Part shown: positions 18,592 to 44,942 of the stretch, piece by piece | Position numbering within the stretch: position 1 is the stretch's first letter | How the letters are laid out: each line of letters opens with the position of its first letter | From: Adineta ricciae | Lineage: Eukaryota; Rotifera; Eurotatoria; Adinetida; Adinetidae | Reading direction: 5' to 3' | Assembly (NCBI GenBank): GCA_905250025.1 | Contig: CAJNOJ010000075.1 | Span: 1 to 64,000, forward strand | DNA: 64,000 bases | Notes under the pieces: generated by a model | What the model was told of the DNA's origin: nothing | Databases searched by the model: none | The model's input: the letters and a program-made list of their open reading frames with translations, nothing else | Position numbers and translations under genes: made by a program

Positions 18592-18800
18592 TTGGCAAAG
18601 AAAGACTAGATTTACACTTTTCTTACAAGAGATAATGACTATTTTTTGGTAGAACTTTATGTATTCGTCGTATGTGATTTTGTTCTATTCTGGCTTTCGT
18701 TTTTAAAAAAAAACTCATATCTTTCTGGTCGATTTGTCTTAATCTTCGGACGCATTTGTCTATACGTATATATATGCATAAATATGTCATGGATATTGTT

Positions 18801-18805
18801 TTTAG
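18801..18805 (+). promoter_or_regulatory. Putative trans-splice acceptor before GRWD1
   Basis: A TTGTTTTTAG tract ends at 18805, 14 nt before the ATG at 18820 and 214 nt after the PCYT2 stop. Inferred spliced-leader acceptor. Confidence 0.4.
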
Positions 18806-18819
18806 ATCATAAGAGAAAA

Positions 18820-20583
18820 ATGGTTAAAACCAAGGGAAAAAATAAGAAAAAGAAACTAGAAAAAAAGGTCAAAGACGTAAAACATGAGGATGATGACTAT
18901 GAAGATATGGATGCTGACGATCAAACCGATCAACCATCACAGCAAGTCTATTTACCGGGTGATCCATTAGATGAAGACGAAGAACTTGTTCGAGAAGAAA
19001 GCGCATATGAAATGTTTCATGAAGCACAAACAGGCAAGTATGTGTATGAAAAGAATACGAGGAAGTTTATCAAGTTTATTCTTGCAGGAGATCCATGTTT
19101 AAGCTTTGATATCTTACCCGATAACTTGGGTATAGATAGAAATCAATATCCACATACAGTATTTATTGTTTGCGGAACACAAGCAGAGAAGTCTGATCGA
19201 AATAGTGTTATGGTTGTTAAAATGTCGAATTTAACCAAAACTTTGAAAGTATGTTGATGATATTGCACAGCAATTACAAGAATGAATTTGATTTTCAGGA
19301 AACATCGTCTGACGCTGAATCAGATGAAGATGATGATGATGATGATGAAGAAGATGCTAAACCAGAGTTTGAATCAGTTTCATTGAAACATTTTGGTGGC
19401 GTTAATCGAATACGAGTAAATAGATCGTTCAGAAATCTCTCGTTCTATCTCTTTACTTGCTGTTTTAGTCAACAATGATCAATGATCGTAAAATAGCAGC
19501 GACATGGTCTGATACCGGTAAAGTTCATATTTGGGACTTAAGTCGATTGGTACATGCTGTGAATGATTCATCTGTGATGGCTGCGTATACCCGAAATCAA
19601 GAATCACCAAATGCTCTATTTACATTTAATGGACATATGGCAGAAGGTAAACGAAAACGCTCCTCTTTAACGTTGAAGTTGATGATTATTTTCTCATATT
19701 CGTAGGTTTTGCTATGGATTGGTCACCAATAGCACCAGGTACTCAATATCAGAAGTTGTATAGAGTATGAGAAAGAGAAACGAACTTGTGTTATTCTTAG
19801 GAGTACTGGCAACCGGTGATTGTTCAAAAAATATCCACGTTTGGAAACCGACTGAAACCGAATGGGCTGTTGATCAAAGACCATACATCGGTCATACGTC
19901 ATCCGTAGAAGATATTCAATGGTCGCCTAATGAACAGAGTGTATGAAAACATTGTTTTCAATCTTGATTAACAATAACATTTGCATTTCGTAGGTTTTTA
20001 CTTCGTGTGGTGTTGATCGAAGTATACGCATATGGGATATTCGTGCGATACCATCGAAAGCTTGCATGTTAACAGAACTCGATGCACATACATCCGATGT
20101 TAATGTGATTAGCTGGAATAAACATGAACCATTTTTGATCTCTGGTGGTGATGATGGATATATCAAAGTTTGGGATTTACGACAATTCTCCGTAAATATG
20201 ACGAACGACAACTTTGAATTGAAAATTTAATCTCGTTTTCTTTCTTTTCCAAGAAACAAACACCGGTTGCTTCGTTTAAACACCATCGTTCAGCTATTAC
20301 CAGTGTCGAATGGCATCATACTGACTCAAGTGTGTTTGCCGCAGGTGGTGCTGATAATCAAATAACACTATGGGACTTAGCAGTTGAAAAAGATAACGAA
20401 GAAAAGAAAGAGCAAGCAGCTGCTAATGATAATAATCATATTGAAAACTTGCCTGATCAGTTACTTTTTATTCATATGGGACAAACAGATATCAAAGAAG
20501 TACACTGGCATAAACAAATACCTGGATTATTACTCAGTACTGCACTATCCGGTTTTAATGTCTTTAAAACAATCAGTGCTTAA
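18820..20583 (+). CDS. GRWD1: Glutamate-rich WD repeat-containing protein 1 (Rrb1-like)
   Basis: WD40 chaperone-like protein of ribosome biogenesis (yeast Rrb1 binds Rpl3) and histone binding. Exons: 18820-19033, 19088-19248, 19299-19415, 19469-19646, 19706-19738, 19801-19940, 19994-20191, 20254-20583 (456 aa). The N-terminus is Lys-rich then acidic. A CAF1C/RBBP4-type N-terminal helix motif ([13 protein letters not shown]) and CLSFDILPD follow. A second acidic run (about 20 Asp/Glu) precedes the WD repeats, which carry IHVWKP, IRIWDI, IKVWDL and ITLWDL blade ends. The first intron (19034-19087) uses a GC donor and is 54 nt with no stop, so reading through it would insert 18 residues. The ATG at 18820 is preferred to upstream in-frame codons because residues before it do not match the family. 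Confidence 0.94.
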
Positions 20584-21086: not shown

Positions 21087-21593
21087 ATGTCTCAGCAAAC
21101 AATGCTTGATGATTTTAGTGTTCGTTTAGTTAATGATCAACCTATTCGTCTTCTTCTATTTGCTGAAGCAGTGTCAAATCTAAGCTTGATATTGTTTGTG
21201 TACTTCTATCCAGCAACATTTCTTGCATTTTTACTTCGACCTGTCGATGAAATAACGCCGTTGACTACGTATATTCTTTCCTGGTGGAATTCGTGGCTTT
21301 TCGTTATCACTGGTTTGATGTTTGCTGCAATTCCATCGAAGTACAATACACCAACGTTGACAGTTGGCTTAATTCATGTTCGTCGTTTCATTTATTGGGG
21401 TCTATTAGCCAGTGAAATACTTCTGATTTACCATCTGTTATTCGCGCGTTATCGAACGGTGTTATCTATCGCATTCTGTATTTTCCTCGCCGCTGTTTGT
21501 ATCGGTCGACTGATCGTACTGTTTCCTAGGCAAGCCTGGTTCGGTACTGTTCTTATTGAATTTTCAAGTGACAAAATGAATAAACAGCGATAG
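21087..21593 (+). CDS. Orphan four-helix membrane protein
   Basis: Not recognised. Single-exon 168-aa protein with about four hydrophobic segments: LSLILFVYFYPATFLAFLL, WLFVITGLMFAAI, FIYWGLLASEILLIYHLLF and VLSIAFCIFLAAVCIGRLIVLF. The N-terminus is short and soluble and the C-terminus (VLIEFSSDKMNKQR) polar. No catalytic motif or charged pore pattern was seen. Its stop lies only about 75 nt from the stop of the convergent carotene ketolase. An integral membrane role is clear; function is unknown. The upstream acceptor-like TTTTTTAATAG at about 20925 could be a spliced-leader site. Confidence 0.65.
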   Translation: MSQQTMLDDFSVRLVNDQPIRLLLFAEAVSNLSLILFVYFYPATFLAFLLRPVDEITPLTTYILSWWNSWLFVITGLMFAAIPSKYNTPTLTVGLIHVRRFIYWGLLASEILLIYHLLFARYRTVLSIAFCIFLAAVCIGRLIVLFPRQAWFGTVLIEFSSDKMNKQR

Positions 21594-21667
21594 ATATCAA
21601 TTAAAAATATTTTTCTTTTATTTTTATTTAAATAAAATAATAATCGAACAGAATGACCAAGATTGTT

Positions 21668-22581
21668 TTATGAAACCGTCTTTTTTCTCATTTCTTTGTA
21701 TTCCCATAACTCCCACCATGGTACAGCTGGCCATCGATGATGTTCCCAATGATAGTCGAAATGATAGCAACACAGGAAGCTAATCCATCGACTTACATTT
21801 GCCGATTTCGACTTTTCCCATGGCATGATTTGTTCGAACTTTCCATTGATTACTGTTGGCCTATGTGGAACATACGTACCGAAATAGAATAAACGTACCG
21901 AACTACATAGTCCACAGACTAACATATACACTATCATGTTCTCCATCGGAACCGAAAATACGAACATGAGTATTATCGTCCATACGATCATTTTCATCGT
22001 CTGTCGTACACTCATATATTCTAACATGAAATTCAAATACCATGAAAAGAATCCGATTGATCGGCCATTGTGAAAGTCAGGATCTTTATTGGGAACACCT
22101 GTGTTCTTATGATGCCGCCAATGTTGTTCATGCATAAATCGAAAATCAAACCAAGCATAAGCAGAAAGACAGATATAGCCAATGGCATTGTTCAATCGAC
22201 GATACTAGAGTAAAATCAGAAAATTAATTCCCTTACTGACAAATAGTATTCGCAGTTTCATGTTTGTTGACCTCTTTGAAATGTCATACAAACTTTATCA
22301 AAACTTTTTATCTTTTCAAAGAAAATGTTCTTGTATTTTCAGCAGTCCTTATATAATCGGACTTAACTTACGCGAGTGCTAACTGTGCCATGCATAGCAT
22401 CATGACTGGTAATAAATAATCCCGTATATAAAAATTCCAAACAACAGAATGTACCGACAATATCAAACCATGTTGCTTTTCTCAAATCGATTTGAAACAA
22501 TGCATGGTACCAAACCAAGATAAATAAAACAATGATACTACCAGCAACTTTCAAACCTTTCAACTCGCTCTTTTTTGACAT
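21668..22581 (-). CDS. BKT: Beta-carotene ketolase (CrtW/BKT type)
   Basis: Membrane di-iron oxygenase predicted to add 4-keto groups to beta-ionone rings, giving echinenone, canthaxanthin or, with hydroxylation, astaxanthin. Exons 22581-22372 and 22204-21668 (248 aa) are joined by a 167-nt phase-0 intron. The histidine clusters are complete: HDAMH (60-64), HEQHWRHH (95-102) and HFDYHWEHH (218-226). Family signatures GLFITSHDAMHGTV, KDPDFH, RLFYFGTYVPHRP and RWPAVPWWELW are present, and they resemble algal BKT and cyanobacterial CrtW more than Paracoccus CrtW. Three to four hydrophobic segments separate the boxes. Animals normally lack this family, so horizontal acquisition is inferred. It is divergent from MFAP1 with 289 nt between the two ATGs. 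Confidence 0.93.
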
Positions 22582-22870
22582 TTTCTTTCGTCAAACGCCT
22601 CTCCTTCTTTAAATATGTGGAAGTCTCATGTGAACTTAGTACACTAACATTCATATCTTATCTTATCACAATGTGTTTCAACAAACGCGAAAACATAAAT
22701 GACAATAAGCCAAGTTGTCTCCGCGCGATATATAACGCCATCTACATGTCATTATATTTGATTCGATCATCGTCAATGACCGTAGAATGTAATGTAATAT
22801 AATAATTTTCTTTATTTTGTTCGATCATCCATTTTGCGCAAGAACAGATTCTTAATTCAAATCAACTCAA
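22582..22870. promoter_or_regulatory. Head-to-head promoter region BKT / MFAP1
   Basis: 289 nt separate the divergent start codons of the ketolase (-) and MFAP1 (+). The interval must hold both promoters. An acceptor-like AGAACAG lies about 20 nt upstream of the MFAP1 ATG. No TATA element is certain. Confidence 0.45.
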
Positions 22871-24746
22871 ATGAGTATGATTGATATTGACGAAGGCTTT
22901 TTCAAAGCACCATCGCTTTCAACGGCTGGTGCTATTACTGTTCGAAATGCCAAAGGACAATTGGTTACACAAAAAGTCAAAGTACGTCGACATGTCGCCG
23001 GAAAACGGTAAGAGTCTATGGGAATTCGAAAAACAGATGATAGAAGAATCTTTGCATTTAGACCTGACTGCGCCGGAGCACTATACGCAAGTGACGATGA
23101 CGATGATGACGAGCAATTTCAACAACAAGTTAAAGCTCCATCAGGTACATGAACACGCTGATTGAGATGACCACTAATTTTTAATGTTTATTTTTCTAGT
23201 TACTCGAATCGAGCAAGAAGATCGTCGCTTGCGTCGTTTGCAAGAACGTGAAACTCAAGAAGATGATGATGATGACGACGATCGTGAACGGTATATTGAG
23301 AGATGCGTTCTGTTTGAAAATATTCTTGTGTATTTGTTTTAGAATCCATCGACGTCGTCGAATTGTTGAACCAGAAATTCTTGAACAAAGTTCAGACGAA
23401 GAAGAAGAAGAGGAGGAGGCGGAAAATGAAGAAGACAAAGAACAAAATGATCGACTTGAAGAAATTGACAATGATGAAATGGATATCGAAAATCAAACTG
23501 TTAGTAATCGTGTTAAAATGGATATCGAGTCATCTGATGATGATGAAGAAGGTGACGACGACGAATACGAACGAAATCGACAGCGTCGTCTTCTTCGAGC
23601 GAAAGAGAAGGCCAAAGAAGAGGTAGAGTATGATTATTAAATTAATAATTGATGTTTTTCTAAATGATTATTGTTCTAAAGGAATTGCTACAAGTTGAAG
23701 ATGAAAAAGAAGTCGAACAGGAAGAAGAGGAATCGTCGGAAGAATCTGAAAGTGACGAAGAAGATGAAGAGGAAGAAGACGATGACGGTATGCCCAGATT
23801 GAAGCCGGTATTTGTCCGAAAGTGAGTCTTTTTAAACAAAAAACTGATTGTTCAATATCAAAGCTATTCTTCATTTCAGAGATGATCGTCGAACAGTCGC
23901 AGAACGTGAGGAAGAAGAAAAACATCAACTAGAACTTGAACGCGAAAAAAAGCGTGTTGCTCATCAACGAAAAATGCAAACTAAACGAGTACGTTATTGA
24001 ACACGTTTTGATTCTTCGAGTTTCTTTTGTCTGTTTAGATAGTCGAAGAGGCAATTAAGGAAGAACAAATACAAAAAGCTGAAGAAGAGGGTGGTATTCA
24101 ATGTGATTTCAATACTGACGATGAAGATGAAGAAGCCGTATATAATGCGTGGAAATTGCGTGAACTCGAACGCTTAAAACGTGATCGAAAAGAACGCGAC
24201 GAGTAAGTTCAATTGTCACATTGTGTTCTATGTACAAAAGGAATTTCTTTAGACGAGAGCGTGAACAACAAGAACTTGAACGTCGACGTAATATGACTGA
24301 AGAAGAACTCCAAGCTGAATTGCGGAATCAATCGAAAGTCGTCACAAACGAAGCACCGAAAGCGAAATACAAATTTTTGCAGAAGTATTACCATCGTGGT
24401 GCATTCTTTCTGGTTTGTCAAGTTTTCTTCGATTTTCTTTATATCAAAACATTCTATTTCCATTTAGGATAAAGAAGATGAGATTTATAAACGAGATTAC
24501 AGTGCTCCAACACTTGAAGATCATTTTGATAAGACTGTACTGCCGAAAGTAATGCAGGTGAAAAACTTTGGTATGGCTGGCCGAACGAAATACACTCATT
24601 TGGTTGATCAAGATACAAGTTCGAAGCAATCGCCGTGGGGGTCAGATAAACAATCGAATCCCAAGTTTCGCCAGGAATTTGCTGGCGGCATGAAACAAGT
24701 TTTTGAAAGACCAAAACTGAAAAATACTTCGAAAAAGACTCATTGA
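22871..24746 (+). CDS. MFAP1: Microfibrillar-associated protein 1 (spliceosomal)
   Basis: Despite its name, a spliceosomal B-complex protein (Spp381 relative) needed for pre-mRNA splicing. Nine exons: 22871-23007, 23062-23144, 23200-23290, 23343-23622, 23682-23821, 23880-23988, 24039-24202, 24253-24412, 24468-24746 (480 aa; human 439). Long Asp/Glu runs and Arg/Glu helical stretches fill residues about 45-330. The conserved C-terminal MFAP1 domain is clear: [15 protein letters not shown], then [20 protein letters not shown] and [20 protein letters not shown]. It is the first of five same-strand genes packed head to tail. Confidence 0.96.
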
Positions 24747-29514: not shown

Positions 29515-31368
29515 TTATTTCCAAACTATACAACAAGCAGTCACTGGACTTTCAGCATCGGTGATCAATTTTTTATCTTCGCGTATACCAAATCCACCAA
29601 ATAAACCATGAATAATCCAACTTCCAATAATTGGATAATATCCATCGAAATTTGTTAACGAAAATAGTTCTTGATATATACAATTTCGATCGATGAATAT
29701 TCCTTGAGTTTCGTGGATAACTGCTTCACCGTTAACATCAAACAGAGTGACATTATGACCACAACGGCCAACGATGGGTTTCTTGACAAATGGAACTTGT
29801 TTTAATTCATCGGTTAAAATATATTCACTACGTAAAAGGTTTGGATGATTTGGATATAGTAACCATAGGGCAGGTAAGATGGCTTTATTGCTTGGAATCA
29901 CTTTCCACAATGGTTCGATCACCTTAATGTGTTCATTTAAGAGAACCTGATGTAGATATGGATGTTCACCATTGTTTTGTCGATTTAAAGTTCCTTCCTT
30001 TTCACATTGAAGATAATTACTAAAAACTGTTTCCCACATCCATAATTTCCATACTAATTCAACTTCATAACCGTCACCATCGACTATCTTCGAATCCTTC
30101 CAATACAGATCATTAGTTATGATGCATATTTTCGAATCAATACCCGCATCTTTCAAAACATTCTGCATATAATAAGCAGTTAATAATTCTTCTTGATCGG
30201 TATCGATTAGAATATGTACACGTTTAATCGACAAGAATTTCTTCCAGTTCTTCACCAGAATGTTGTGCAGTTGAAATGCCGACATGAATGTTCGTTCGAA
30301 ATTAATCGTTTGCGCCCATTTCTCTTGGATGACAGCCATTTCAAATAGAGCGGAAGCACTGTCAGCATTGTATTCAAAAACTTTGATTTCTTTTCCGTTG
30401 AAAGCTAAATCAAATCGTCCTGTCATCGTTAACTGTTTTTCATTCAACCACGATTGACGAATTTTCGGCCAGAACACTTCCGGAATGCAGAAATGTCTCA
30501 AAACATCATCATTTTCTAAAACATATTCAGTTGCATGAAGAAACATTTCATGTAGTTCATTCGATACACCGCCAATATTCAACAGTAAATCTTGATTCGC
30601 TTTGTAAAAAGGTAGAGTATTGGTGTCTGTACGTATCAAATCTGTTCCATATAGTTGCATAAACAATTGCTCAGCTTTATCATTCTCATTCAACCATGCA
30701 AATGATAACGTGGACGTTTTGCTTGGTATTACACATCGTTCTAATGTGCCCATCGAATTGGTTTGTTGATATTGCTTCAAGATCAAATCAAGTTTAGTCT
30801 CGTCCAATGGTTCTAAATTTTCAATATCATCAATTTCCATCCATCCGTAAACTTCATGTTGATCTTCGATGTAATAACAATTATTTTCGAATCTCAATGG
30901 AATTTCCCGAGAATAATCGTCCGACCAATTGTAATATTCATAATTTTGTTCAGCAATACGAATGTAACCGGGTACAACATCACATATAATCGCAACATGA
31001 CCAAATGGTAACGCTGGACTACGTGGATAGATAAGTAAGGAATCTCGTTTAGGTTTATCTGATGTGCCATTTAGATGTGCGATGAGGGGAATTTGTTTGC
31101 CATCGGTAACACGTTCGAGTGCTTGCAATTTAGTCCATATATCAGCAGCAGCGTAGGGTATGCCAGAAAAAATGCAGCTTTTACGCATTAAAAGCCATCG
31201 ACGGGCGAATTCGATACATTCCCATTTGAAGCCCAAAAAGATGCCATGATAATAATGACGTTCAACCGAGAAAAAATGATCATCACCATTGGAGTAGGCA
31301 CAAACATTTGTCGAAGTGACACCCTGGATTTCATTGAATGGTACGACCTCACGTCTACGATGCAACAT
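29515..31368 (-). CDS. gspS: Bifunctional glutathionylspermidine synthetase/amidase
   Basis: Ligates glutathione to spermidine with ATP and can hydrolyse the product; related trypanothione synthetases make the bis-adduct. Intronless, 617 aa (E. coli GspS 619). An ATG at 31368 was chosen; the frame opens slightly upstream with only a GTG. The N-terminal CHAP/amidase domain has the triad C51 (GFKWECIEFARR), H124 (FGHVAII) and E140, with spacing matching E. coli C59/H131/E147. The ATP-grasp synthetase half has GRFDLAF and VFEYNAD, placing R, D, E and N exactly as the E. coli active site does. KKPIVGRCGHNV and GIRED follow near the C-terminus. Absence of introns among intron-rich neighbours and a bacterial/protist family point to horizontal acquisition. 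Confidence 0.96.
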   Translation of the reverse strand: MLHRRREVVPFNEIQGVTSTNVCAYSNGDDHFFSVERHYYHGIFLGFKWECIEFARRWLLMRKSCIFSGIPYAAADIWTKLQALERVTDGKQIPLIAHLNGTSDKPKRDSLLIYPRSPALPFGHVAIICDVVPGYIRIAEQNYEYYNWSDDYSREIPLRFENNCYYIEDQHEVYGWMEIDDIENLEPLDETKLDLILKQYQQTNSMGTLERCVIPSKTSTLSFAWLNENDKAEQLFMQLYGTDLIRTDTNTLPFYKANQDLLLNIGGVSNELHEMFLHATEYVLENDDVLRHFCIPEVFWPKIRQSWLNEKQLTMTGRFDLAFNGKEIKVFEYNADSASALFEMAVIQEKWAQTINFERTFMSAFQLHNILVKNWKKFLSIKRVHILIDTDQEELLTAYYMQNVLKDAGIDSKICIITNDLYWKDSKIVDGDGYEVELVWKLWMWETVFSNYLQCEKEGTLNRQNNGEHPYLHQVLLNEHIKVIEPLWKVIPSNKAILPALWLLYPNHPNLLRSEYILTDELKQVPFVKKPIVGRCGHNVTLFDVNGEAVIHETQGIFIDRNCIYQELFSLTNFDGYYPIIGSWIIHGLFGGFGIREDKKLITDAESPVTACCIVWK

Positions 31369-32813
31369 GATCACTATTCTAAAAGTAAAATCGCCTATAT
31401 GATGCTATTAATACTAATAATCACAACAGCAGTTCATCGAATTATACAAATATTCTTTTATGTAGAAAGAGCGAGAAAACATGACGTATGGCGGTTTCTA
31501 TTCTGTTCTAGAATTTGAATCATGACAAAAAAGTACGAGTAGAAACAGGAACCTTTTCGAACGAATGCGTACTAGTCAACATGTATTTATACTTTTGACA
31601 AACAAGGAGAAGAAATCGTTATCTACAGCTCCCCTCCGTCATCACCCCCAGATACTTTACACTCTCCAGAGGGTTGTTTTTGAGTATAACTGAAATCACT
31701 AAGTTTCCTAGTTCAAAAGGGAATCGGGTTGTTCATGTCTTATCGAAAACGTTAGCTGCTTATCGCTTACCGATTTAATGCTTGCCTTCGTTGTTTTCAA
31801 TGTTCGTTTTACTTGATGTCCTTTCACTTTTTATTATGTCAATTCAGAAAAGAAAAGGAAGAGTTATATAAGCATGTTCGTAGGTTGGATGAATAATATG
31901 CGAGAGAAATAAAGCTGACGATGACGACGCATTTGTCATGAAAATTTTTGCGGACGCATACAATCGATTTCGTTAAACTCGAATCAAACATCCTACATCT
32001 CAATCTCTTTCTTTCTTTCTTTATATGTTGCTCTTGTCATGGAGAACAACACATAAAAAAATGCTTTGTCATATTTCACAGTGCAAAAAAATTCCATTGC
32101 CGCTGACATTCATCTTCTCCTACAGATGATTCATTTCAACGTGAAGTTTAGTCCTTAGATGTAATATATTTTTTTCATTTGAAGTGATCATTTGGAAATA
32201 ATGAAGAACCTCAATAATTGGCGATGATTAATGTCTCGTAATATGTCGCTAGAAGACGGAGAGATTCTCGTTCTCTCGTTCCTATCATTTGCGTCACTAC
32301 TATAGCCGTTTCGGTTCTACCCCCGAACTCGAGCGGAATTGACTCATCCTCGATGAGTCTATGTGATATACTACGTAAACAACAAATATTTCTATCGTTT
32401 TTTTTTCACATAACGCGTCATTTCTAACTCGTGACACCGTGCTTGTGTTCCCAACGACTTCCTATCAATATTTTATGCTTCCTAGATAATAGAATGTGAA
32501 ATAACTGAAGCAGTTTGATTTTATCTTCGTTTTATCAGCTATTATTAAGCTAAAAAGAATAACTAGATTCGATTCTACTGAAATGAATGATTTATTTGGA
32601 AACTTTATTTGTTCTTATTTTTTCAACGCTTGTTCGCTCATGTAAACATGAATATTAGCTTCTAACTAACGAAAAATGACAATGAACGTTCATGTTTAGA
32701 TACAAAACAAATCGGAAGATCGGAAGGTTACATATTCACGAAAGGAAAAAAGACGTTTATAAAAGATTCTTCTACTAGAATATAAAAAATAAACAGCTGT
32801 AAGCTGAACAGAT
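31369..32813. other. Intergenic region upstream of gspS
   Basis: About 1.4 kb between the gspS start and the 3' end of the aminotransferase. No supported gene. It contains a TATATAA-like element near 31865 and a perfect short inverted repeat at 32341-32359. Confidence 0.45.
32341..32359. repeat. Short perfect inverted repeat with AP-1-like half sites
   Basis: GACTCATC-CTC-GATGAGTC: 8-bp arms and a 3-nt loop. The left arm with the preceding T gives TGACTCA, the AP-1/TRE consensus. About 0.97 kb upstream of the gspS ATG; function unknown. Confidence 0.4.
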
Positions 32814-35677
32814 CTATTTCCATTCTCGTAGAAATGACATATGAAATGTGCGAAAACGCTCAACCATATCTTTCATTTGATCAACCGGTGGCAAAATCGT
32901 TGTGCGAAGATGATGTGTTCCAGGTCGTTGTTTAAAACCACTACCGGGTACAACACAAATGCCGGTCTTTTCAAGTAATTGAAAACAATAAAATGCATCA
33001 GGTGCCATTTTCTTCGATTTTGCATATTCGATGGCTTTCTTCGGAATTTCGATACGAGGAAATGCATACATTGCTCTGAAATAGCCGAGAATTCGGTTGA
33101 TGATCGAAAGTAATAATCTTCGTGGTACTCACCCCATAACAGCATTGCAGCGTACACCTTCAACTGAATTGAACAGTTGGCTGACAAGATCAGCTTTTTC
33201 CTTCAATCGATTAACAACCATCGTTCGTTCTTTCTTATACAGTTCATACGATTCTTCACCTTCTCTTGGTGGACTTATGATCGCTCCCATGACAGCTTGA
33301 CCCCACGATGTCGAACATAGACATGCTGAGATTAGTTTATTTACTTGCATTCGAACATCTTTGTCAAGATTGATTAACTCGTAGTAACCACCACGAGAGC
33401 CACATCTATATTTATAGATAGAATTAGATTGTTGTCTACGCGCGAATATCGGTTTCGACTTACTCGCCATGCCAACCTTTCGATGCCGAATGAAATGAGG
33501 CTGAGATGGAAAAGAAAAGAAACAAATCATGATGAATTTCTTCAAGGAAACGCGTTCGCTTAACATACCCATTTCCATTTGATTGTAAGGTGCACCGAGA
33601 TCCATGAGAACTTTTTTGAATGAGAAGAATTTCGAACCTGGTAGATAAACATTTTCTTGATAGACTTCATCAGCCATGACAAATAATTGATGTTTATGTG
33701 CTAAATGAAANATGAAATGAGGCTGAGATGGAAAAGAAAAGAAACAAATCATGATGAATTTCTTCAAGGAAACGCGTTCGCTTAACATACCCATTTCCAT
33801 TTGATTGTAAGGTGCACCGAGATCCATGAGAACTTTTTTGAATGAGAAGAATTTCGAACCTGGTAGATAAACATTTTCTTGATAGACTTCATCAGCCATG
33901 ACAAATAATTGATGTTTATGTGCTAAATGAAAGTATTCATAAACGAAGAAATCGATTTCGACCGTTGTCCTTACCAAATCGAATTACATTTTCAATATTA
34001 TCACGTGCAAGTACTTGGCCTAATCAAGATATAGAACAGACATTTCTTTCTGGAAAACAAACTCTCATATTTCATATTTACCGGTGGGATTTCCCGGATT
34101 GATAACTACGATACCGCGCGGAACACATTTACTCTTCGCTTCATTCAACGAACGCTCCAATTCATCAATATTTAGAGCCCAATTGTTATCTTCGTCGAGA
34201 TAATATTCAATTTGATGTGCGCCATATTCAGATAAAGTTGCACTGTAGAGTGGATATTGTGGTACAGGAATCATCTAGTCAATCGAAATCAGACATACAC
34301 ATAAGACTTGGAATAAACCGTCACTTACAATTCCTGATGGTTTGGCTGGATCGTTATTCATTAAAAGCTTGATGACAGTTTTAATACCATCGGAAGCTCC
34401 ATTACAGAGATAAATGTTACCTGCATCAGCTGGATAGCCATCCCGCTGTTGAATATAGGCTGCAACATCTTCTCGTATAGTGATTATGCCTTGACTCTCC
34501 GTATATGAACCAAGACTTTTACCGCCACATGCTGATAGTAAACGTTCTACTCGTTGTTTAACATCTCGTGGAAAGTCAGGCGAATTCATTACCTCGGGAT
34601 AAGTACATCCGGCTACAAACTATCGTCAGCAATTTGGATTGGATTCATCGAAAAGGAAAAATTAATTGATATACGAACCTGTCGAATATATGTAATTGGT
34701 GCTTGATTACCGCTAGCATGGCAATCACCGATATTAGCTCGAATAACTCGATCGAAAGGGTAATCGTGCTTGCCCTGAAAATGAACAATGTTGAAGTGTG
34801 AGTAACAAATATAACAATACCGATTTCATTTCGTTTTCAATCTCCTTCGCACGGGTAAGAATTGGGCCTCGAACAGCATACTCGACACTTATAATATGTG
34901 GATTCAAATTTTCAATCGATAGACTTTTATTCATAGCCATAGCGATTCTTTTACGCGAGCGACTCAACTGTTTTCTTTATCAAACGAAAGATTTGCAATC
35001 AAGGAAGTATTTGCATTGACCTTAGGTTCGACTCTATTCATATAGAAAATACCAACAAACGTTCGCACGTGTTAAAGTCAAGTGCACAAATATATCTTTT
35101 TCTCTCCATTCTCAAAAGGGTATGTTTCTTTTCTTTTCAATAACGTTATAGGTATGATGTTCTTTTTTTTCAATCACAAGATACGATAACAGATATGGTT
35201 ACCTTTAATTGACGTTCGATTTCTCCTGCACGAATAACAATCGGACCTTATGAATTAAACAAACATAGAGACATCATGATGAAAATCAACAGTCGAGCTT
35301 TTTACCTCGAACAGCGTATTCGACCTCTTTGACAAGAGGATTTAGTGTTTGCATATTTAAAGTTGCATATCGTTTCTGTTCTTTTCTATAATTGATACCG
35401 GCAGCGAGAACTTGTCGAGCTGAATTTAGCGATAATCGATATTTTACTGCAAGCATGTCTAATTCTTATTTCTGAAAAATAAAANNNNNNNNNNNNNNNN
35501 NNNNNNNNNNNNNNNNNNNNNNNNNNNNNNNNNNNNNNNNNNNNNNNNNNNNNNNNNNGGATTTAGTGTTTGCATATTTAAAGTTGCATATCGTTTCTGT
35601 TCTTTTCTATAATTGATACCGGCAGCGAGAACTTGTCGAGCTGAATTTAGCGATAATCGATATTTTACTGCAAGCAT
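32814..35677 (-). CDS. GPT: Alanine aminotransferase with alternative mitochondrial and cytosolic 5' exons
   Basis: PLP enzyme interconverting alanine/2-oxoglutarate and pyruvate/glutamate. Shared exons: 34774-34679, 34619-34329, 34274-34082, 34019-33975, 33922-33791, 33500-33464, 33405-33133, 33075-32814. The PLP lysine lies in [25 protein letters not shown] and DEVYQENVY are present. Two 5' ends fit in phase 0. A proximal exon (34940-34821, [16 protein letters not shown]) gives 482 aa. A distal pair (35456-35306 plus 35246-35203) starts [20 protein letters not shown], an Arg-rich presequence, and gives 507 aa. Both encode the same VEYAVRGPI segment, so they are mutually exclusive. The distal exon also appears beyond the N gap (ATG at 35677), and exon 33922-33791 recurs at 33700-33569; both look like assembly duplications. 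Confidence 0.93.
33490..33932. repeat. 221-bp direct duplication joined by a single N (assembly artefact likely)
   Basis: Bases 33490-33710 and 33712-33932 appear identical and flank one N at 33711. The unit carries one aminotransferase exon and its intron edges. Using the exon twice would break the protein, so only one copy is expected in the genome. Confidence 0.85.
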
Positions 35678-43124: not shown

Positions 43125-44942
43125 TCAGAATTTATAACGCCAATCTGATGCGTAAGGGTACGATGAGTAATAATCTAAATAGAATGGTATTTGATATTTA
43201 TCTTTTTTTTCGAAGAGTTGCATCTACCTGCTGGTGGAACTGGTATAGAAAAGTTGGCAGATGGATAAGATGCTGATGGACAGAAGATTTCATTGGAATC
43301 TAGAAAGAAACGTTTACTACATTCGAAATGAACTCCTGTTTTCATTTACGTGTTGTCGACGTCGCATCGAAATCATTTTTAATTGAGATAAATTCATTCG
43401 TATTGTAATTTGTATAGTTATTCGAAGGACAAATCGTATTCCATTTCGCACGGCGTTGATCTAAATATGTCTAGAAGAGACAAAAATTCGTTTCATCATT
43501 CGATTGGTTGATGAATTTTGCCATACTTTGACGACTGATTCGGCGAGACCAGTTTGTTTAACGATCGACTCCATTTGTGCATGATCAGCCCATGGATTGT
43601 CTTTGAAGAACTTATCCAGGAACTTGATTTGTTCATTCGGAAAATATTTCTCGTCTAATGGTTCTAAAACAAAACCAGTGTCATTATTCAATTCATTTGA
43701 GAATTCAACTAAACTTTTGACAGTAAGACTAATGGTCTGTCTGAATAGAAGAAGAAAAAAAAACTCTCATACCATTAGAATGATTTGTACGAGATAATGA
43801 GCGTGGCTTTATTGTTGAATATTCATATTGAGAATGATTAAGTAAACTATGAATACTATAAACATTTGGTGGCGAAGACACATTCGTTTGTTGATGGTGA
43901 GTGCGACTATCATCTTCGGCGGTCGTCGCTGTCGGTGATGAAGCATCAGTTGATCCATTTCGATTGCGAACGATTCTGAAACGAAGATGAACTTGTTTTT
44001 TTTGCATTTCCATATTAATTTCTCCTAATGAACTTTGACACGTAGATCATGTTACTTCTTTTAAGATTTAATTGAGTAGAAAATTTAGTTTTGATTTAAC
44101 ACAAATAGAACAGATTGTCTTGTGGGATTGGGAGATAGAACAACATACGATCAGAAACAATCAATCGGAGCGTTTTTAATTGGACGAGACAAAATTTCTC
44201 TCAGATTGTCACCTGTCTTTTCAATATCTAGGAAGAAAATTCTCTGTTTTTTCTTTGCAATTAAACATCGTTGCGATTCATTAGTTGCTTGACAATCGAA
44301 AATGAAATTTTGTTTTGATGGAAGATTTATGAAGTACAATCAAATATGAATCGATATTTGACAACAAAACGTTTCTTACCTATTTATTGAGCTAACACTT
44401 GGAACTTTATCAGCTTCACATATGCCATCAGCAATGAGACGTTCGCGAATTTCCCATGCGAACATTGTTGGAGCTTGATTCTTGTAATTATTGATCGCAT
44501 CGACAACTTTAGGTGTGGCAACCTTTGGTTTACTTCCACCGATAATGCCTGGACGTATCGACCCTGTTTCATGATATCTAAACAGAAACAAATCGCTCTA
44601 AACTTTAGAAACAAGATTCTTTTTTCTCTCTGTCTTTACCTGCCCAAAATCTTACTCACACATCCATGCGACACTCGTAACTGACGACTGATGTCACATG
44701 GCCTTACGCCCTGTTTAGCTAATTCGACAATCGATTGCCGAATGTTATCTGGTAAAGGTCGTCCATTGACGAAAACTCCTCCGAGTTGATTGATTCCTCC
44801 ATGTCCTATATATGCAAAGCAAATCGAATAAATGATGACTCTTAGTAATCATCGATGCACAAAGAGGGAAATATTGATAGAAATACCTACCGAACTTCGA
44901 ATATCGGTATTGAGCTGCAACGAGCTGGTTGAACGGAAACAT
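43125..44942 (-). CDS. PAX: Pax transcription factor (Pax2/5/8-type paired domain plus divergent homeodomain)
   Basis: Developmental DNA-binding regulator. Eight exons on the minus strand: 44942-44891, 44805-44640, 44577-44380, 43975-43773, 43708-43527, 43470-43350, 43299-43228, 43174-43125 (347 aa). The paired domain starts at about residue 18 ([20 protein letters not shown]). It includes [33 protein letters not shown] and [12 protein letters not shown], closest to Pax2/5/8. An octapeptide-like [10 protein letters not shown] follows. The homeodomain has helix 1-2 [20 protein letters not shown] and [19 protein letters not shown], but helix 3 is [10 protein letters not shown]. The invariant W48 and N51 are thus Tyr and Gln. 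The 56-nt intron before helix 3 is the only one that keeps frame. The tail is Tyr/Ser/Pro-rich. Confidence 0.93.

What the first reader, a model, noticed from the sequence alone, without database searches (positions are those of the whole stretch)
21668..22581. Algal/cyanobacterial-type beta-carotene ketolase in an animal genome
The sequence shows a complete CrtW/BKT ketolase: all three histidine clusters and the FGT..PHRP and RWPAVPWW signatures, with motif wording close to Haematococcus/Chlamydomonas-type BKT. It sits between ordinary animal genes and carries one spliceosomal-type intron, so it looks integrated rather than a contaminant. Animals generally lack this family. A working enzyme would let the host make ketocarotenoids (canthaxanthin, astaxanthin) from dietary carotenes, which could explain red pigmentation or add antioxidant protection. 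The origin is inference; the family is seen directly.
Basis: partly seen in the sequence, partly recalled or inferred. Interest (0 to 1): 0.88.

Follow-up and report, generated by a model that had tools for sequence, protein, structure and literature searches.

The report
Algal-type carotenoid ketolase in an animal
An animal, most likely a bdelloid rotifer, carries a complete foreign gene, apparently most like those of green algae, for the enzyme type that turns yellow carotenes into red ketocarotenoids; it could explain a pigment conversion already reported in these animals, but its activity has not been tested.

Summary
On the minus strand, exon 22581-22372, a 167-nt GTAAGT...CTCTAG intron and exon 22204-21668 encode an intact 248-aa CrtW/BKT-type beta-carotene ketolase (CrtW profile E=9.5e-64, 215 bits, under that model's 350-bit cutoff). 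It keeps 41 of 47 columns that are at least 95% conserved in 90 bacterial rows, including every histidine among them. The closest bacterial proteins found are about 41-43% identical. The contig carries a paired-box gene, so the host is an animal; GC, short introns and a linked trypanothione-synthetase-like gene suggest a bdelloid rotifer near Adineta ricciae. Bdelloids are reported to contain echinenone not detected in their food, and to express foreign carotenoid-pathway transcripts (PMC3779155, PMC3499245); this gene is a named candidate for that step. Family and integration are well supported, algal source probable, activity inferred. A new member of a known enzyme family in an unusual host.

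The parts
21668..22581 (-). BKT/CrtW-type beta-carotene ketolase gene, 248 aa, two exons
22372..22581 (-). exon 1 (70 codons; hydrophobic segments at residues 5-34 and 39-59; histidine box 1 HDAMH)
22205..22371 (-). spliceosomal-type intron, 167 nt, GTAAGT...CTCTAG, GC 28.7%
21668..22204 (-). exon 2 with stop (histidine boxes 2 and 3, FGTYVPHRP, HWEHHRWPAVPWW)
21594..21667 (.). 74 bp between the convergent stops, with poly(A)-signal-like hexamers on both strands (plus AATAAA at 21631 and ATTAAA at 21600; minus AATAAA beginning at 21628 and 21622)
   Evidence: consensus match only
22582..22870 (.). 289-bp divergent intergenic region shared with MFAP1; presumed promoter region
   Evidence: read by eye; inference
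22871..24746 (+). MFAP1, ordinary eukaryotic neighbour; contains a clear 55-nt intron 24413-24467
21087..21593 (+). 168-aa hydrophobic ORF, no Pfam family above threshold (weak DUF4345, E=0.055)
18610..20583 (+). WD40 gene with CAF1C_H4-bd domain (GRWD1-like, name recalled), several exons; outer limits are those of the ORFs scanned

Best explanation
The gene is a horizontally acquired beta-carotene 4-ketolase of the membrane di-iron CrtW/BKT family, probably of the type found in green algae, fixed in the nuclear genome of an animal (most likely a bdelloid rotifer close to Adineta ricciae). Proposed mechanism: a membrane protein with two hydrophobic N-terminal segments and a further hydrophobic stretch at about residues 138-179 binds two irons through the conserved histidine clusters and uses O2 and reducing equivalents to oxidise C4 of the beta-rings of dietary carotenoids: beta-carotene to echinenone to canthaxanthin and, from zeaxanthin, towards astaxanthin. 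It lacks the 49 and 76 residues that precede its start in the two recalled algal proteins (presumably plastid targeting), so it probably works in the animal's ER membrane or lipid stores. Shown: family, intact frame, intron, linkage to animal genes, conservation of the histidines. Probable: algal-type origin, bdelloid host. Inferred: activity, products, location, pigment or photoprotective role.
For: Gene model and intact frame. CrtW profile E=9.5e-64 versus CrtR hydroxylase profile 2.4e-6. Gap between strong and weak matches in 194 genomes (35 places at 2.4e-31 or better, next 1.8e-7). 41 of 47 columns at least 95% conserved in 90 bacterial rows are kept, including H60, H64, H98, H101, H102, H184, H222, H225, H226. 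Tree of 56 rows: window plus the two recalled algal BKTs 100/99, stem 0.98, CrtR far outside. Scores: Haematococcus anchor 236 bits, Chlamydomonas 215, best bacterium 193; searched the other way, the anchors give the window protein 236 and 233 bits and their best bacterium 174 and 180. 17 residues shared with both anchors but in at most 10% of bacteria; maximum 5 in 1748 bacterial pairs of like identity. Animal host: paired box and homeodomain, RPN7 closest to chains that I recall as mammalian. Bdelloid-like GC and introns and a linked TryS-like gene (class reported in A. ricciae). Phenotype: echinenone in bdelloids, not detected in their biofilm food (PMC3779155); carotenoid biosynthesis 10 of 10 EC numbers foreign in A. 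ricciae transcripts (PMC3499245).
Against: The algal anchors are recalled from memory; without them the window row is a long branch (1.77) with odd letter make-up and no supported place, and with them the AU test does not reject at 0.05 a clade with Ignavibacteria/Kapaibacteria (p=0.055). The bootstrap of the main tree had not settled. The NCBIfam score (215) is below the equivalog cutoff of 350, though only 6 of 14 bacterial genomes that I picked exceed it. Six near-invariant columns differ; at F20, Y163 and C167 the window differs from both the bacterial consensus and the anchors. GC3 is slightly above all nine neighbouring stretches measured. The exon-2 model (pLDDT 87) had no PDB match at E<=0.001, so there is no fold support. 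PMC3779155 itself notes echinenone in many invertebrates, and known animal ketolases are P450s (recalled; CYP2J19 in the listing), so the pigment does not require this gene. No expression data. PMC12559811 reports red pigment fading over generations in culture and thinks it dietary, which fits conversion of dietary carotene but also plain uptake.
Confidence: 0.75

Rival explanations
1. Direct acquisition from a bacterium (Poribacteria, Ignavibacteria/Kapaibacteria or cyanobacteria), with the resemblance to algal BKT due to convergence or to an uncertain recall of the algal sequences.
For: Best held matches are Poribacteria at 40-43% and Ignavibacteria/Kapaibacteria at 37-40% identity; AU p=0.055 for the Ignavibacteria/Kapaibacteria clade; long unplaced branch without the anchors. 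Most foreign transcripts in A. ricciae appear prokaryotic (59% eubacterial, 6% algae or plants; PMC3499245).
Against: 17 diagnostic residues shared with the algal anchors against at most 5 in bacterial control pairs; AU p=0.018 (one Poribacteria row) and 0.027 (24 cyanobacterial rows); no bacterial match above about 43% identity.
Confidence: 0.13
2. Same family and origin, but the enzyme has changed reaction or substrate (for example a carotenoid hydroxylase or another lipid oxidase), or is silent.
For: Three near-invariant columns carry residues unlike both the bacterial consensus and the anchors (F20, Y163, C167); membrane di-iron oxygenases switch reactions readily (recalled); no expression evidence.
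Against: All nine histidines among the near-invariant columns and 41 of 47 such columns are kept; intact frame and normal splice sites; reported echinenone in bdelloids fits ketolation.
Confidence: 0.15
3. Assembly artefact: an algal or bacterial contaminant joined to an animal contig.
For: The scaffold does contain N (33711; 35485-35558) and a likely assembly duplication at 33489-33932.
Against: No N before 33711; GC and codon usage like the neighbours', with only a slightly higher GC3; at most 45% identity to any relative compared, so none of those is a recent source.
Confidence: 0.02
4. Vertically inherited ancient eukaryotic gene lost from nearly all other animals.
For: The window row branches beside the algal pair, not inside it; only two algal anchors, from closely related algae (recalled), were available.
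Against: Would need many losses across animals. In the passages I saw of a 2023 astaxanthin review (less than half of its text is held) the transferred carotenoid genes named for animals are fungal CrtYB and CrtI only (PMC10608541).
Confidence: 0.04

Closest known systems
Green-algal BKT (Haematococcus and Chlamydomonas beta-carotene ketolases; sequences recalled)
   Same: 43-44% identity over 249-255 columns, same histidine boxes, same HDAMHGT, YAWFD, CYHFDxHWEHHRWP and PWW wording
   Different: No N-terminal extension of 49 or 76 residues; animal host; window row sits beside, not inside, the algal pair. Algal intron positions not compared
Bacterial CrtW (NCBIfam NF045690), e.g. Poribacteria, Ignavibacteria, cyanobacteria
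   Same: Full-length alignment, 41 of 47 near-invariant columns, similar size
   Different: At most about 43% identity; M164, R174, D220, R227, W228 occur in at most about 1% of 90 bacterial rows; score under the equivalog cutoff
CrtR beta-carotene hydroxylase (NF045688)
   Same: Same membrane di-iron superfamily; moderate homology of CrtR to CrtW is stated in PMC10608541 (passage)
   Different: 24-26% identity, E 1.4e-8 to 6.6e-7 for four cyanobacterial rows, far outside in the tree
Animal carotenoid ketolases (cytochrome P450 CYP2J19 and kin; recalled, seen in the listing)
   Same: Same proposed reaction
   Different: Unrelated protein family (recalled)
Fungal carotenoid genes (CrtYB, CrtI) acquired by aphids and mites (passages)
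   Same: Carotenoid enzymes gained by an animal through gene transfer
   Different: Different enzymes (synthesis of carotenes, not ketolation) and a fungal source

Membership tests
CrtW/BKT beta-carotene ketolase | Significant match to the CrtW profile over the full length | tested here: met
   NF045690 E=9.5e-64, residues 3-244 to profile 20-254 of 257
CrtW/BKT beta-carotene ketolase | Conserved histidine clusters of the membrane di-iron centre | tested here: met
   H60, H64, H98, H101, H102, H184, H222, H225, H226 identical to columns at least 95% conserved in 90 bacterial rows
CrtW/BKT beta-carotene ketolase | Groups with ketolases and not with CrtR hydroxylases | tested here: met
   Branch 100/100 between two CrtR rows and the 54 others
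CrtW/BKT beta-carotene ketolase | Membrane di-iron fold by comparison with solved structures | tested here: inconclusive
   Exon-2 model only, pLDDT 87; no PDB match at E<=0.001
CrtW/BKT beta-carotene ketolase | Converts beta-carotene to echinenone and canthaxanthin | not testable with these tools
   Needs expression and HPLC
NF045690 equivalog in NCBI's strict sense (curated cutoff) | Score of at least 350 bits | tested here: not met
   215 bits, so it is not filed as that equivalog; 8 of 14 bacterial genomes that I picked among those of fetched relatives also have no match over the cutoff
Algal-type BKT | Closer to algal BKT than to any bacterial CrtW | tested here: inconclusive
CrtR-type hydroxylase | Best match to the hydroxylase profile | tested here: not met
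   NF045688 E=2.4e-6, 26.9 bits against 215 for CrtW
Bdelloid horizontally acquired gene | Linked to metazoan genes on the same contig, with host-like composition | tested here: met
Bdelloid horizontally acquired gene | Host is a bdelloid rotifer | tested here: inconclusive
   GC, intron length and a TryS-like gene agree with reports on A. ricciae; no rotifer sequence was available to compare

The most novel reading that the evidence does not exclude
Bdelloid rotifers use a non-P450, di-iron, algal-type ketolase, stripped of its plastid-targeting extension and moved to an animal membrane, to turn dietary beta-carotene into echinenone and red ketocarotenoids; it would be the first such ketolase in an animal and the enzyme behind pigment conversion reported in rotifers since 1962.
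Probability: 0.5. Interest if true: 0.66.

Novelty: new member of a known kind. Interest (0 to 1): 0.55.

Why it matters
Bdelloids are reported to contain echinenone that was not detected in their food, and the authors proposed conversion of ingested beta-carotene, pointing to transferred carotenoid genes in general but, in the passages I saw, to no particular enzyme (PMC3779155). Carotenoid conversion to astaxanthin in rotifers, Philodina included, was reported in 1962 (Gilchrist and Green, as cited there; the citing authors suspect it may have been echinenone). This gene is a specific, cloneable candidate for that step, so the question can be tested directly. It would also show an animal using an algal-type membrane oxygenase where other animals use P450s (recalled), with possible roles in UV and oxidative protection of desiccation-tolerant animals. 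It is not a new kind of system: transfer into bdelloids is common, and foreign carotenoid-pathway transcripts in A. ricciae were already tabulated (PMC3499245). My searches of the held papers (rotifer + ketolase + horizontal gene transfer; beta-carotene ketolase + rotifer; CrtW + bdelloid; rotifer + ketocarotenoid + enzyme; bdelloid + astaxanthin; Adineta + carotenoid) listed no title, and no passage I opened, that reports this gene; supplementary tables could not be read, so it may be listed there.

Tried and rejected
Whole-genome search of the host: none held, so copy number and homeologues could not be examined. Phage and viral collections: no relative. PDB by sequence: no related solved structure (two hits, best E=0.1). 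Structure: exon 2 only was modelled, with 31 locus proteins as alignment; Foldseek gave nothing at E<=0.001, which I treat as uninformative because histidine box 1 and the first two hydrophobic segments are missing from the model. Rfam and tRNA scans: nothing. A search of paper texts for a recalled algal motif, meant to verify the recalled sequences, found nothing. Considered and rejected: contamination (composition, intron, no N nearby), a CrtR-type hydroxylase, cyanobacterial origin (AU p=0.027). The first bacterial control for shared residues used random pairs (maximum 5 in 2000 draws); it was repeated with pairs of like identity because random pairs are seldom sisters (maximum 5 in 1748). 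Codon-usage correlations of host genes with the pool that contains them are inflated; only BKT, the TryS-like gene and the 168-aa ORF are outside the pool. Rows dropped before the trees: rows over 72% identical to one already kept, and three short unnamed rows (L111, L114, L115); they remain in the 90-row conservation count. Proteobacterial CrtW is represented by three plasmid rows only. In the window survey, 31 different open frames were sent to Pfam as DNA references, not all frames of the window. One notebook entry calls the 222-bp duplication perfect; one search says 99%.

Full report
Observation. On the minus strand of 21668-22581, an ATG at 22581 opens a 70-codon exon that ends at a GTAAGT donor; a 167-nt intron ends in CTCTAG, and a second exon runs to a stop at 21668. 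The 248-aa product is intact. The splice falls inside a stretch that aligns to three bacterial proteins without a gap, which supports the intron boundaries. The CrtW profile of NCBIfam matches nearly its full length at E=9.5e-64, while the CrtR hydroxylase profile gives 2.4e-6. In 194 genomes of a cyanobacterium's phylum the window protein finds 35 places, in 33 genomes, at E 2.4e-31 or better and then nothing until 1.8e-7, so it belongs with the ketolases and not merely with the wider desaturase superfamily. Its score of 215 bits is under the curated cutoff of 350, but only 6 of 14 bacterial genomes that I picked among those of fetched relatives pass that cutoff.

Catalytic residues. Against 90 bacterial rows (83 loci plus 7 unnamed loci), 47 columns are at least 95% conserved; the window protein keeps 41, including H60, H64, H98, H101, H102, H184, H222, H225 and H226. 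Of the six departures, M164, R174 and D220 agree with the recalled algal anchors; F20, Y163 and C167 do not.

Host. No genome of the host is held. The same contig carries a paired-box domain closest to Pax5 and Pax8 with a nearby homeodomain, RPN7 whose best solved relatives (E 6e-93 to 1e-86) I recall as mammalian, the next being at 1e-60, an FTSJ1-like methyltransferase, MFAP1 and a WD40 gene. The host is therefore an animal. It is probably a bdelloid rotifer: window GC is 36.06% against 35.6% reported for A. ricciae, whose median intron is 55 bp (PMC5916493, passages); a 55-nt intron is plain at 24413-24467. A 629-aa trypanothione-synthetase-like gene lies in one open frame at 29518-31404 (452 bits to trypanothione synthetase of Leishmania, 329 to glutathionylspermidine synthetase/amidase of E. 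coli, organisms recalled), and foreign glutathionylspermidine and trypanothione synthetase transcripts are reported from A. ricciae (PMC3499245, passages). Bdelloid identity remains an inference; no rotifer sequence was available to compare.

Integration. The first N of the window is at 33711. The gene sits 74 bp from the convergent 168-aa ORF and 289 bp from the divergent MFAP1 start. Its GC (37.9%) lies within the range of nine neighbouring coding stretches (35.8-45.6%), its GC3 (0.386) slightly above theirs (0.248-0.357), and its codon-usage correlation with pooled host genes is 0.70.

Origin. With them, the window protein scores 236 and 215 bits against 193 for the best bacterium, and the tree of 56 rows joins it to the two algae at 100/99 with a stem of 0.98, although the bootstrap had not fully settled. 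Seventeen residues are shared with both algal rows and occur in at most 10% of bacteria; the most seen in 1748 bacterial pairs of like identity is 5. On a quick tree, forcing the window with 24 cyanobacterial rows or with the Poribacteria row is rejected (AU p=0.027 and 0.018); with Ignavibacteria/Kapaibacteria it is not quite (p=0.055). Without the recalled rows the window protein is a long, unplaced branch. The algal type is thus probable, but verified algal sequences are needed. The protein starts 49 and 76 residues later than the two recalled algal proteins, as expected if a plastid-targeting part was lost.

Function and literature. A review passage states that this enzyme type oxidises beta-carotene to echinenone and then to the diketone (PMC7463686). 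Field bdelloids contained echinenone (0.53-0.72 ug per mg dry weight) that was not detected in their biofilm food, and the authors suggested that rotifers convert beta-carotene (PMC3779155, passages); they cite foreign carotenoid genes in bdelloids, meaning PMC3499245, whose Table 2 lists 10 of 10 carotenoid-pathway EC numbers as foreign and whose main text does not contain the word ketolase. An orange acanthocephalan (a relative of rotifers, recalled) had no carotenoid synthesis gene among its transfer candidates (PMC7310846, passages). Against a unique role, echinenone is found in many invertebrates, and known animal ketolases are P450s (recalled; listing).

Tests that gave nothing. An AlphaFold model of exon 2 (pLDDT 87) had no significant match in the PDB. 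The phage and viral collections gave no relative.

Verdict. A real, intact, integrated foreign ketolase gene of the CrtW/BKT family in an animal, probably algal in type and probably in a bdelloid. As an enzyme it is a new member of a known family; its interest lies in the host and in giving a testable cause for a reported pigment conversion.

Noticed in passing
window 29518-31404 minus: 629-aa trypanothione-synthetase / glutathionylspermidine-synthetase-like gene in one open frame, with a CHAP domain; best solved match is a trypanothione synthetase. Probably a second foreign gene, about 7 kb from BKT, of a class already reported in Adineta ricciae.
   Followed up: partly
window 33489-33932: A 222-bp tandem duplication (99% matches) with a single N (33711) at its centre inside an aminotransferase-like frame; probably an assembly join, not biology.
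   Followed up: partly
window 21087-21593 plus: 168-aa hydrophobic single-exon ORF between the WD40 gene and BKT with no Pfam family above threshold (weak DUF4345, E=0.055); origin unknown.
   Followed up: no
window 43464-44848 minus: Paired-box gene (paired domain closest to Pax5/Pax8 among solved structures) with a homeodomain nearby; marks the contig as metazoan.
   Followed up: partly
window 35485-35558: Scaffold gap of 74 N.
   Followed up: no
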